Source of the DNA: Oscillospiraceae bacterium
Lineage (GTDB): Bacteria > Bacillota > Clostridia > Oscillospirales > Ruminococcaceae
Length of the DNA: 64,000 bases
Assembly: GCA_021769725.1 (NCBI GenBank)
Contig: JAETSI010000002.1
Span: 62,001 to 126,000 of the forward strand
Reading direction: 5' to 3'
Shown: positions 12,905 to 52,116 of the stretch, one piece after another
Numbering within the stretch: the stretch's first letter is position 1
How the letters are laid out: every line of letters starts with the position of its first letter
Notes under the pieces: model-generated
Database searches by the model: none
What the model was told of the DNA's origin: nothing
What the model saw: only the letters and a program-made list of their open reading frames with translations
Position numbers and translations under genes: made by a program

Positions 12905-12967
12905 GGCCGTGTAGCTTAAAAAGAGCGTTGAATTTCAAAGGTGCTGGTGCAAGTCCAACCGTGGTCA
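12905..12967 (+). ncRNA. tRNA-like leader upstream of the zinc-ribbon gene
   Basis: A 63-base segment folds like a shortened tRNA. GGCCGTG (12905-12911) can pair with CGTGGTC (12960-12966) using G-U pairs. A D-arm-like GCTT-AAAAA-GAGC follows at 12914-12926, then a short TTG/CAA hairpin where the anticodon arm would be. A T-arm-like TGG-TGCAAGT-CCA sits at 12945-12957, with its seven-base loop one base away from the tRNA T-loop consensus. The full anticodon arm is missing, so it is not a normal tRNA. The word GGTGCAAGTCC also occurs in cobalamin riboswitches, but their other boxes are absent. It ends about 20 bases before the next ribosome site, so a cis-regulatory role is plausible; this is inference. 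Confidence 0.4.
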
Positions 12968-12993
12968 AAAAATAATAAGAGAGGTATATGAAA

Positions 12994-13269
12994 ATGTACG
13001 AAGACAAGACATTAGTCTGCAAAGAATGTGGAAATGAATTTATCTTTTCTGCAGGAGAGCAGGAATTTTACGCAGAAAAAGGATTTGTAAACGAACCTCA
13101 AAGATGTAAGGCTTGCCGCAGCGCCAGAAAAAATGCTGGCAGAACCGAGCGTGTATTGTATACTGCTGTATGTGCTTCATGTGGTGGAGAAGCGAAGGTT
13201 CGTTTTGAACCAAAAGAAGGCAGACCTGTTTACTGCAGTGAGTGTTTCGCAAAAATGAACCAGGCTTAA
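12994..13269 (+). CDS. Small zinc-ribbon protein (zf-trcl-like, CxxC type)
   Basis: A protein of 91 residues with two paired CxxC units: CKECG with CKACR in the first half, and CASCG with CSECF in the second. The second half carries the characteristic VRFEPKEGRPVYCSECF stretch seen in a family of small Firmicutes zinc-ribbon proteins of unknown function. I prefer ATG 12994 over the ATG two codons earlier (12988), because GAGAGG ends nine bases before it and family members begin MYxDKTL. It is probably a zinc-binding or redox protein in the cytoplasm. It is preceded by the tRNA-like leader. Confidence 0.8.
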   Translation: MYEDKTLVCKECGNEFIFSAGEQEFYAEKGFVNEPQRCKACRSARKNAGRTERVLYTAVCASCGGEAKVRFEPKEGRPVYCSECFAKMNQA

Positions 13270-13324
13270 TTGTTATGCCTTACTCTATTGCAAAATGTCT
13301 GTCGAAAGATATGGATGGATTGCA

Positions 13325-13562
13325 TTAAAGGCTGGTATATAAGTCGTCTTGGCACAGCCGGGTATATTTCCGGCTGTGCCCGGAGAGGTCATCGCTATTT
13401 GCCTATATACTCCACTGGTTAAAGTTCAGATTGATAAAAGGCTGTATCTGTGAGTTTCTGTAGAATTGATTCGGCAGAATGTCACAGGGACAGCGTCCCT
13501 TGTTATGCTTGCCTCTGCTGCAAATTATCCGGTAATGTCGGACACTTTGCAGCAGCGGCAAG
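13325..13562 (+). ncRNA. Highly structured non-coding region upstream of the DUF1858 gene
   Basis: The 326 bases between the zinc-ribbon and DUF1858 genes hold no convincing gene but three strong hairpins. Hairpin A has a perfect 11 bp stem GGCACAGCCGG/CCGGCTGTGCC (13351-13380, 8-base loop). Hairpin B pairs ACAGGGAC with GTCCCTTGT (13484-13503, AGC loop). Hairpin C (13508-13562) pairs CTTGCC with GGCAAG and CTGCTGCAAA with TTTGCAGCAG, 16 bp with one mismatch and an inner CCG/CGG. TGG-TATAT (13333-13340) can pair with ATATA-CTCCA at about 13405-13414, enclosing hairpin A. No stem is followed by a T-run, so these are not ordinary terminators. It may be a stand-alone structured RNA or a long leader; no known RNA class was recognised. 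Confidence 0.45.
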
Positions 13563-13595
13563 TATATGTTCAAACAATCGAAAGGATGAATTTAA

Positions 13596-13796
13596 ATGCA
13601 GGTTACAAAAGAAACTATTATCGGGGATATTCTTGATGCTGATTTTGAAGTTGCACCCTTCTTTCTTGAAATAGGAATGCACTGTCTCGGCTGCCCCGCT
13701 TCAAGAGGAGAATCAATTGAGGAGGCGTGCGCCGTTCATGGAACTGATCCGGATGCTCTCGTTGAAAAGCTTAACATTTATTTTGCTTCTAAGTAA
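13596..13796 (+). CDS. DUF1858 domain protein (putative disulfide redox domain)
   Basis: A 66-residue protein matching the DUF1858 family: it starts with the typical TKETIIGDIL segment and carries the pair CLGCP (Cys29 and Cys32) in the form MHCLGCPASRGESIEEACAVHG. The family is often found fused to or near hybrid-cluster and redox proteins and is thought to hold a redox-active disulfide; its function here is unproven. The ATG at 13596 follows AAAGGATG. It is preceded by a 250-base structured region and followed by a terminator-like hairpin. Confidence 0.8.
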   Translation: MQVTKETIIGDILDADFEVAPFFLEIGMHCLGCPASRGESIEEACAVHGTDPDALVEKLNIYFASK

Positions 13797-13806
13797 TTAT
13801 GTTCCG

Positions 13807-13842
13807 GCGTGCTGTGGTCAATGCGGCACGCTGTTATTTTTT
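13807..13842 (+). terminator. Terminator-like hairpin between DUF1858 and trmK-nif3
   Basis: GCGTGC (13807-13812) pairs with GCACGC (13826-13831), extended inward by wobble pairs, and is followed by TGTTATTTTTT. It lies just ahead of the next ribosome site, so it may attenuate read-through into the downstream run of genes. Confidence 0.55.
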
Positions 13843-13858
13843 GAGAAGGGGTGCAGAA

Positions 13859-15310
13859 ATGCTTGATAACAGACTGAAAATGTGTGCGGAACTTGTTTCG
13901 GGACGTGGAACGGCTGTTGATGTTGGCACAGATCATGCTTATCTTGCGGCAGATCTGATTCTTAGCGGAAAGTGCAGCAAGGTCATTGCTTCTGATATTA
14001 AGGAAGGCCCGCTTGAATCCGCACGAAAAACTGTTGAAAAGTATAACATATCTGATAAGGCAGAACTTGTGCTGTCTGACGGGCTTGAGAATATAAATCT
14101 TGACGGAGTAACGGATATAATAATTGCCGGAATGGGCGGTGAGACAATAATTGAAATACTTAAACCGAAAGTTTATGAGCTTTACGGCGTTAATCTGATT
14201 CTACAGCCTATGACAAAGCCTGAAATTCTCAGGAAATGGCTGTATGAATCCAATATTCAGATAAAAACCGAGAAAGCGGCAGATGTAAACGACAGGCTAT
14301 ATACGGTTATTTGTGCTGAAAGCGACATTGAAGCTTATAGCAAACTGACGGAGTCTGAGTCTGTTTCCGGATTTTTTGATGATGATGACGAACTTGGGAA
14401 AAAATATCGTCAGATCGAATCGAAGCGGCTTGAAAAGGTGAGCGAAGCTCTTGAAAAATCCGGAAAAATTAATGAAGCTGTTCATTATCGCTGTCTTGGA
14501 AAAAGGGTCTCGGAGGGCGCACAGTCTGTGGATATGAATGAGCTGTATGTATTTCTGGATGAAAAATATCCTTTTTCCGCTCAGGAAAAGTGGGATAATT
14601 CCGGATTTTTGGTCAATTCTTGCTTTGATTCAGTCAGAAAAGTTCTATTGGCTCTTGATATAACGAATGAAGTGATTGAAGAGGCAGATAATAAAAGAGC
14701 AGATGTAATAATTTCACATCATCCTGTGATATTTGAGCCGCTGAAAAAAATAACTGCTGATGATCCTGTCTATAAGCTTATAAGCTGCGATATATCTGCA
14801 ATTTGTATGCATACCAACCTTGATATTGCACAAAATGGTACTAATGGGGTAATATTGAAAATGCTCTCCGGAAGTTTTGCCTTTTCAAAAAAGCCTGAGC
14901 CTTTTGAGGAACTTGGCAATGGACGTAATCTCGGCTGGATAATCGAACTTGATGAAAAGGTATTTTCAGATGAATTTGCTGTTGAATTAAAACGGATCTT
15001 TGGATGTGAATATGTTCGCACCTCAAGGAATACCAGAAAAATGATCTCACGTATTGCATTTTGCTCCGGTTCGGGCGGCTCGATGCTCGGACTTGCAAAG
15101 CGTAAAAATTGCGATGCCCTTATCACAGGAGATGTTAAGCACGATGTCTGGGTAGCTTCAAATGCTATTGATATCGCTGTATTCGACTGTGGTCATTTCC
15201 ACACGGAAAATCCTGTTTTATGGGAACTAAGACGTGTTCTTGAAGAAAAATATCCGCAGCTTGATGTTGAGATATCTGAACGTTCGGTTGATCCTGTAAT
15301 TTATTTCTGA
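13859..15310 (+). CDS. Fusion of TrmK (tRNA m1A22 methyltransferase) and a Nif3-like metal protein
   Basis: One continuous frame of 483 residues joins two proteins that in Bacillus are separate neighbours (YqfN/TrmK and YqfO). Residues 1 to about 225 are TrmK-like: SAM loop VDVGTDHAYLAADL, acidic SDIKEGPLESARK, and the IAGMGGETIIEIL motif; TrmK methylates N1 of A22 in tRNAs. From about residue 230 a Nif3-family domain follows, with KWDNSGFLV, HHPVIFEPLKKI, HTNLD, GSGGS and DCGHFHTENP, the histidines and acids that bind two metals. The domain lacks the PII-like insert of YqfO. The start is ATG 13859 behind AGAAGGGG; an upstream frame from 13799 overlaps the terminator hairpin. It is the first gene of a tight run extending to 21.7 kb. 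Confidence 0.88.
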   Translation: MLDNRLKMCAELVSGRGTAVDVGTDHAYLAADLILSGKCSKVIASDIKEGPLESARKTVEKYNISDKAELVLSDGLENINLDGVTDIIIAGMGGETIIEILKPKVYELYGVNLILQPMTKPEILRKWLYESNIQIKTEKAADVNDRLYTVICAESDIEAYSKLTESESVSGFFDDDDELGKKYRQIESKRLEKVSEALEKSGKINEAVHYRCLGKRVSEGAQSVDMNELYVFLDEKYPFSAQEKWDNSGFLVNSCFDSVRKVLLALDITNEVIEEADNKRADVIISHHPVIFEPLKKITADDPVYKLISCDISAICMHTNLDIAQNGTNGVILKMLSGSFAFSKKPEPFEELGNGRNLGWIIELDEKVFSDEFAVELKRIFGCEYVRTSRNTRKMISRIAFCSGSGGSMLGLAKRKNCDALITGDVKHDVWVASNAIDIAVFDCGHFHTENPVLWELRRVLEEKYPQLDVEISERSVDPVIYF

Positions 15311-52087: not shown

Positions 52088-52116
52088 ATGACATTTGCAA
52101 TAGAGGCGATTATAAT
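52088..52116 (+). promoter_or_regulatory. Candidate promoter for a small gene
   Basis: ATGACA (52088-52093), a 17-base spacer and TATAAT (52111-52116), on the plus strand about 105 bases before the ATG at 52221. Confidence 0.4.

What the first reader, a model, noticed from the sequence alone, without database searches (positions are those of the whole stretch)
13325..13562. Unassigned structured RNA candidate upstream of a DUF1858 gene
About 240 bases with no plausible gene hold three strong hairpins: perfect 11 bp, about 8 bp, and 16 bp with one mismatch. A possible long-range TGGTATAT/ATATACTCCA pairing encloses the first. None is followed by a T-run. It does not show the marks of RNase P, tmRNA, SRP RNA or 6S RNA. 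It may be a novel non-coding RNA or a complex leader controlling the putative redox gene.
Basis: partly seen in the sequence, partly recalled or inferred. Interest (0 to 1): 0.7.

Follow-up and report, generated by a model that had tools for sequence, protein, structure and literature searches.

The report
Three stem-loops, one a transposon relic
The 240 bases between two small bacterial genes are not one new RNA but three unrelated hairpins side by side: a likely former transcription terminator, a hairpin kept in five related species that likely acts in the messenger RNA, and a likely recent insertion of a 63-base transposon relic.

Summary
The hairpins are real (fold z -7.2, 0 of 200 shuffles as stable), but they are three independent things. 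(1) The 11-bp hairpin, 13351-13380, is the orthologue of the stem-loop that follows the CxxC zinc-finger gene in 39 of 49 distinct loci. A T-run follows it in 30 of 34 loci outside the window's clade and in 1 of 5 inside, so here it is probably a degenerated terminator. (2) The middle hairpin, 13441-13494, is found at one locus in five of 125 genus genomes. Its sequence is strongly kept, but covariation is inconclusive. (3) The last hairpin, 13504-13566, is a 63-bp MITE: the sister species has an empty site with a single TA, and the own genome holds 30 matches to its end motif, reversed control 0. No Rfam family reaches threshold in the stretch. The most striking RNA nearby lies outside the coordinates: an anticodon-less tRNA-like leader (12905-12967) before the zinc-finger gene, with strong covariation and a strong model hit in 48 of 117 genomes of the order.

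The parts
13274..13339 (.).
   Evidence: Absent from sister G112; the 20-base flanks joined with one TA match G112 at 38 of 42, without TA at best 23 of 40. Left end matches the end pattern with 3 mismatches. Fold z -2.3.
13351..13380 (+). Hairpin 1: orthologue of the 3'-end (terminator-type) stem-loop of the zinc-finger gene, without a T-run here
   Evidence: Core stem in 39 of 49 distinct loci with compatible pair changes; TTT within 16 nt after the core in 30 of 34 loci outside the clade, 1 of 5 inside.
13441..13494 (+). Hairpin 2: single-locus stem-loop conserved in five species
   Evidence: Alignment A2, 35 of 54 positions invariant; model R1 finds five loci at E <= 8.4e-15 in 125 genomes, next locus 4.4e-4; covariation not significant.
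13486..13500 (+). Short hairpin that overlaps the 3' arm of hairpin 2 (possible alternative fold)
   Evidence: Alternative pairing in all five species; p 0.021, 0.004, 0.028, 0.009 against shuffled downstream letters in four, 0.264 in the window.
13504..13566 (.). Hairpin 3: 63-bp palindromic MITE
   Evidence: Both ends match the end pattern without mismatch; empty site with one TA in G112, 37 of 42 matched against 24 of 40 without TA; z -8.2.
12988..13269 (+). Zinc-finger gene (zf_Tbcl; CxxC-x17-CxxC), upstream neighbour
   Evidence: Pfam PF13451 2.2e-25, PF23477 1.5e-17; TIGR04272.
13596..13796 (+). DUF1858 gene (hybrid-cluster-protein-associated redox disulfide domain), downstream neighbour
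   Evidence: Pfam PF08984 1.6e-20; TIGR03980 1.3e-25.
13805..13843 (+). Intrinsic-terminator-like site after DUF1858, probable end of the transcript
   Evidence: 12-pair stem followed by TTATTTTTTG; consensus match only.

Best explanation
The stretch is a patchwork of three unrelated stem-loops between two small genes that are likely transcribed together: the 3'-end hairpin of the zinc-finger gene, without the T-run that likely makes it a terminator in relatives; a stem-loop kept in five species that likely acts in the mRNA; and a 63-bp MITE that likely inserted at a TA after the split from the sister species. Shown: the position and pair changes of hairpin 1, the restriction and sequence conservation of hairpin 2, and the repeat nature and TA-flanked empty sites of hairpin 3 and of a decayed copy upstream. 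Inferred: in much of the genus hairpin 1 with its T-run limits read-through from the zinc-finger gene into DUF1858. In this clade the T-run is gone and hairpin 2 has been added, so both genes would lie on one read-through mRNA in which hairpin 2 sets stability or processing between the two reading frames. The MITE adds a further hairpin, for which I can show no selected function.
For: Hairpin 1: core stem in 39 of 49 distinct loci, with GC/AT/CG/GT/TA types at one pair and CG/TA/TG at others; T-run in 30 of 34 outside, 1 of 5 inside the clade. 20 of 29 loci with both genes have only 78-160 bases from the zinc-finger stop to the DUF1858 start, and the scan finds no promoter between 13380 and 13596. 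Hairpin 2: five loci only, 35 of 54 positions invariant although TrmK-Nif3 is 59-61% identical to the window's in three of the four other genomes. Hairpin 3: end pattern 30 times in the own genome, control 0; eleven further paired copies of 160-279 bp; a 64-bp copy in G017; TA-flanked empty sites for both copies in G112.
Against: No transcript data: co-transcription and loss of termination are inferred. The hairpin 1 pair counts come from single folds and lean towards pairing. Hairpin 2 shows no significant covariation (78 to 88 of 500 shuffles do as well) and could be an old insertion. 10 of 49 loci lack the hairpin 1 core, and 4 of 34 outside the clade lack a T-run. No partner transposase was proven: the own genome and four other high-copy genomes have no DDE_3 match.
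Confidence: 0.7

Rival explanations
1. Hairpin 2 is a two-state regulatory leader of DUF1858: the long stem (13441-13494) and the overlapping short hairpin (13486-13500) exclude each other, and a ligand or protein would choose between them.
For: All five species can form an overlapping short hairpin with different downstream letters; in four it is better than shuffled downstream sequence at p < 0.03. The arms are almost invariant.
Against: The long stem is 14 to 24 kcal/mol more stable and forms first; in the window p is 0.264. No T-run or paired start site common to the five explains an output. Window and G112 are near copies, so there are few independent cases.
Confidence: 0.15
2. Hairpin 2 is the fossil of another palindromic element that entered the ancestor of the five species and has no function.
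For: Relatives without it have a much shorter spacer (for example L070); two other palindromes did enter this spacer.
Against: No second strong copy in 125 genus genomes or 295 order genomes; 35 of 54 positions are invariant across genomes whose TrmK-Nif3 is 59-61% identical to the window's.
Confidence: 0.15
3. All three hairpins form one structured RNA.
For: Strong joint fold, z -7.2.
Against: The sister species lacks hairpin 3 and the 5' arm of the long-range pairing; hairpin 1 follows the zinc-finger gene in many species without hairpins 2 and 3; the spacer between hairpins 1 and 2 is unstructured.
Confidence: 0.03
4. The minus strand of hairpin 2 is an HDV-like (CPEB3-type) ribozyme.
For: CPEB3_ribozyme match at 13459-13511 on the - strand, 20.5 bits, E 0.0044 and 0.0019.
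Against: Far below the gathering score of 35; the alignment has 3 bases where the family has 24 in the core and breaks three pairs; the + strand matches too, at 10.2 bits.
Confidence: 0.02

Closest known systems
MITEs with TA target sites (IS630/Tc1-mariner-like class; class recalled)
   Same: Short, non-coding, palindromic ends, many copies, TA duplicated at the site, empty site in the sister species
   Different: Extreme short form (63 bp, almost one hairpin); no partner transposase proven in the own genome
Intrinsic terminators
   Same: GC-rich stem right after a stop codon in relatives, mostly with a T-run
   Different: In the window the T-run is missing and the hairpin is pushed about 80 bases from the stop by a MITE copy
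Intercistronic mRNA stem-loops that set stability or processing in operons (recalled)
   Same: Long stem between two co-oriented genes with little room for a promoter in most relatives
   Different: Known at one locus in five species, both arms conserved in sequence; no transcript data
REP/BIME-type palindromic repeats (recalled)
   Same: Dispersed palindromes between genes
   Different: TA duplication and longer versions with the same inverted ends point to transposition of a MITE

Membership tests
MITE (hairpin 3) | Terminal inverted repeats | tested here: met
   Ends of 13504-13566 both match the end pattern without mismatch
MITE (hairpin 3) | Many dispersed copies | tested here: met
   30 end matches in the own genome at up to 2 mismatches, reversed control 0; eleven further paired copies
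MITE (hairpin 3) | Target-site duplication and empty site | tested here: met
   Flanks joined with one TA match G112 at 37 of 42, without TA 24 of 40 at best
MITE (hairpin 3) | Autonomous partner with the same ends | tested here: inconclusive
   Truncated HTH frame just inside a related end in G130, weak IS630 match below cut-off; DDE_3 loci in 3 of 8 genomes, none in the own genome, without convincing ends
Intrinsic terminator (hairpin 1) | GC-rich stem at the 3' end of a gene | tested here: met
   Core stem in 39 of 49 loci; window stem z -6.4
Intrinsic terminator (hairpin 1) | T-run after the stem | tested here: not met
   Window: none within 16 nt of the core; 30 of 34 loci outside the clade have TTT
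Known Rfam family | Score at or above gathering threshold | tested here: not met
   No match in the stretch; weak ones only
Riboswitch or regulatory leader (hairpin 2) | Conserved structure supported by compensatory changes | tested here: inconclusive
   Two compensated pairs in five sequences; 78 to 88 of 500 shuffles as good
Riboswitch or regulatory leader (hairpin 2) | Ligand-dependent change of expression | not testable with these tools
   Needs probing and reporter assays
HDV-like ribozyme (minus strand of hairpin 2) | Complete nested pseudoknot core | tested here: not met
   20.5 bits against gathering 35; core stretch missing in the alignment

The most novel reading that the evidence does not exclude
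The zinc-finger/DUF1858 transcript is controlled by RNA on both sides of its first gene: an anticodon-less tRNA mimic in its 5' leader, widespread in the order, and, in five species only, a terminator that was rebuilt into a two-state stem-loop (13441-13500) that couples the redox-disulfide gene to the zinc-finger gene.
Probability: 0.15. Interest if true: 0.75.

Novelty: new member of a known kind. Interest (0 to 1): 0.42.

Why it matters
It shows how a convincing candidate RNA (z below -7) can arise from unrelated hairpins, part of it mobile DNA, and how one sister genome settles this. It describes an abundant TA-target MITE family of this genus. It narrows the real question to a 54-nt stem-loop conserved in five species. 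The walk along the likely transcript also turned up a tRNA-like leader with strong covariation in front of a zinc-finger gene, a directly testable case of tRNA mimicry in a bacterial mRNA leader.

Tried and rejected
Known RNA classes: no Rfam match at gathering threshold in the stretch. The weak matches (CPEB3 ribozyme, miRNA precursors, a CRISPR repeat, Gut-1) look like chance matches to palindromes.

Long-range pairing TGGTATAT/ATATACTCCA: rejected as a conserved pairing, since the 5' arm lies in a transposon remnant missing from G112.

Own promoter for DUF1858: the consensus scan lists none between 13380 and 13596; weak evidence.

Hairpin 2 as a dispersed repeat: rejected, no second strong locus. 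The best weak hit (G067, L174, E 4.4e-4) follows a frame with zinc-ribbon-like cysteines (read by eye) and has its own T-run, so I read it as an ordinary terminator.

Autonomous transposon: DDE_3 matches in 3 of 8 genomes (none in the own genome, G088, G143, G129 or G148); in 19 loci fetched the only end-like sites were two 3-mismatch ones in L297. Frames beside ends in two further G130 stretches are short or broken, and a G109 stretch beside an end held no transposase-sized frame.

Literature: eight full-text searches gave no relevant report; six returned nothing, two returned one listing each; I saw only listings with the start of an abstract and read no paper.

Full report
WHAT WAS CHECKED. 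The stretch 13325-13562 lies between a 93-aa CxxC zinc-finger gene (12988-13269; zf_Tbcl, TIGR04272) and a 66-aa DUF1858 gene (13596-13796; TIGR03980). The three hairpins exist as described. The whole stretch folds at z -7.2, and each hairpin alone is significant (z -6.4, -4.9, -8.2), while the spacer 13390-13436 is not structured. No Rfam family reaches its threshold in the stretch; weaker matches are few and look like chance.

WHY IT IS NOT ONE RNA. 125 genomes are held for the genus. Relatives were collected by the TrmK-Nif3 protein (matches in 115 of 120 genomes) and by DUF1858 (116 of 125); the intergenic region was read in the 30 best loci of each. The sister genome G112 (TrmK-Nif3 92% identical) has the same region but lacks two pieces, about 66 bp at 13274-13339 and about 63 bp at 13504-13566. 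Joining 20 window bases on either side with one TA between them matches G112 at 38 of 42 and 37 of 42 positions; without the TA the best ungapped matches are 23 of 40 and 24 of 40. Both pieces thus behave as insertions with a duplicated TA. Precise loss from G112 is the less likely alternative.

HAIRPIN 3 IS A MITE. A pattern for the element's end occurs 30 times in the own genome with up to 2 mismatches, against 0 for the pattern read backwards. 52 of 125 genus genomes have at least one match; many have only one or two, which is the level of the control, but G088, G017 and G143 have 169, 88 and 50. With 3 mismatches the own genome has 47 matches against 8. In the 30 own loci fetched, eleven further paired copies of 160 to 279 bp were found. 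A 64-bp copy in G017 and a shorter one of about 57 bp in G032 show that the short form recurs. A partner transposon was not proven: in G130 a truncated HTH protein begins just inside a related end, with an IS630 match far below cut-off. DDE_3 genes were found in 3 of 8 genomes and not in the own genome, G088, G143, G129 or G148, which carry many ends; none of the 19 loci had convincing ends. That counts against a resident IS630-type source.

HAIRPIN 1 IS THE 3' END OF THE ZINC-FINGER GENE. From 72 loci given, 49 distinct downstream sequences remained after dropping loci without a usable match and duplicates; 39 of 49 form the same core stem (CAG/CTG) after the stop codon. The pairs vary compatibly: offset -4 AT 12, GC 11, GT 8, CG 5, TA 1, unpaired 2; offset -2 CG 26, TA 7, TG 3, unpaired 3; offset +3 CG 21, TG 11, TA 6, unpaired 1. 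These counts come from sequences folded one by one and lean towards pairing. A TTT within 16 nt after the core is found in 30 of 34 loci outside the clade and in 1 of 5 inside it (L068, 12 nt away). In 20 of 29 DUF1858-anchored loci that hold both genes the distance from stop to start is 78-160 bases; in six it is 424-429, and in the window, G112 and L092 it is 329, 203 and 204. I infer an intercistronic terminator with some read-through in the genus, which has lost its T-run in the window's clade. The scan's best terminator lies after DUF1858 (13805-13833).

HAIRPIN 2 IS THE UNSOLVED PART. It occurs in the window, G112, G066, G011 and G142, each time upstream of DUF1858. A covariance model built from these five finds them at E 1e-16 to 8e-15 in 125 genus genomes; the next locus stands at 4.4e-4. 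In 295 order genomes only the own locus stands out (next 0.0023). Of its 54 positions 35 are invariant, although TrmK-Nif3 of G066, G011 and G142 is 59-61% identical to the window's. Covariation is not significant: 91.8% of cells pair, two pairs have a compensatory change, and 78 to 88 of 500 shuffles do as well on these measures. An overlapping short hairpin can form in all five. It beats shuffled downstream sequence at p 0.021, 0.004, 0.028 and 0.009 in four of them and 0.264 in the window, but the long stem is 14 to 24 kcal/mol more stable. I take a selected mRNA stem-loop as most likely, and a switch or a fossil insertion as possible.

NEXT DOOR: A tRNA-LIKE LEADER. Rfam reports a tRNA at 12905-12967 (37.3 bits), where ARAGORN finds none. 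The same cloverleaf, with a very short or replaced anticodon arm, no CCA and a T-loop that mostly begins UG instead of UU (tRNA rules recalled), precedes the zinc-finger gene in many genus loci, though a subgroup (for example L080-L090) shows another leader, and in many but not all of 80 named loci. Of 12 such loci sent to Rfam only L067 reached the tRNA threshold. 35 of the 58 rows were aligned; false, near-identical and very long rows were left out by eye. The 20-pair structure has 54 cells changed on both sides against 22.4 in shuffles (0 of 500) and at most 10 when slid; the two weaker measures were reached by 12 and 33 of 500 shuffles. A model scan of 117 order genomes gives 48, own included, with a hit of at least 45.8 bits. 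Of 29 such loci fetched besides the own one, 28 lie directly upstream of the zinc-finger gene; the 29th has a short contig with no room for it. In a class-wide scan of 148 genomes 28 have hits at 1e-8; of 18 new loci examined 5, all in one family of another order, again precede this gene, and of the other 13 the seven printed look like ordinary tRNAs. Searches gave no report of it. It lies about 360 bases upstream of the finding and presumably on the same transcript. Its function is untested; mimicry of tRNA to bind the encoded protein or a tRNA-handling protein is my guess.

VERDICT. The finding is a composite of a degenerated terminator hairpin, a clade-restricted stem-loop and a MITE.

Noticed in passing
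window 12905-12967 (+); loci L262-L290, L313-L316, L326: A tRNA-like leader without a normal anticodon arm stands in front of the zinc-finger gene. Cloverleaf covariation is strong (54 cells changed on both sides against 22.4 in shuffles); 48 of 117 order genomes have a strong hit, and 28 of 29 loci checked lie directly before this gene.
   Followed up: partly
window 52094-52114 (-): Another match to the MITE end (1 mismatch) in the same window, C202:114094-114114, without a paired end found.
   Followed up: no
L167, L168, L166 (G138): G138 carries arrays of short hairpins (CCAAAGGG/CCCTTTGG, AGGGACAGCGTCCCT, CGGGGC/GCCCCG, GGACAGCGTG) in inverted pairs about 390 bases apart; one of them equals 13485-13500 letter for letter.
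   Followed up: no
L002, L004 (own genome): A second dispersed hairpin (GCAACACCGCACAAAG...CTTTGTGCGGTGTTGC type) lies beside MITE copies.
   Followed up: no
window 13856-15310: TrmK tRNA methyltransferase and a Nif3/DUF34 domain are fused in one frame; near-full-length matches occur in most of 120 genus genomes.
   Followed up: no
L080-L082, L084, L089, L090: In six relatives the zinc-finger to DUF1858 gap is 424-429 bases and seems to hold a further small reading frame.
   Followed up: no
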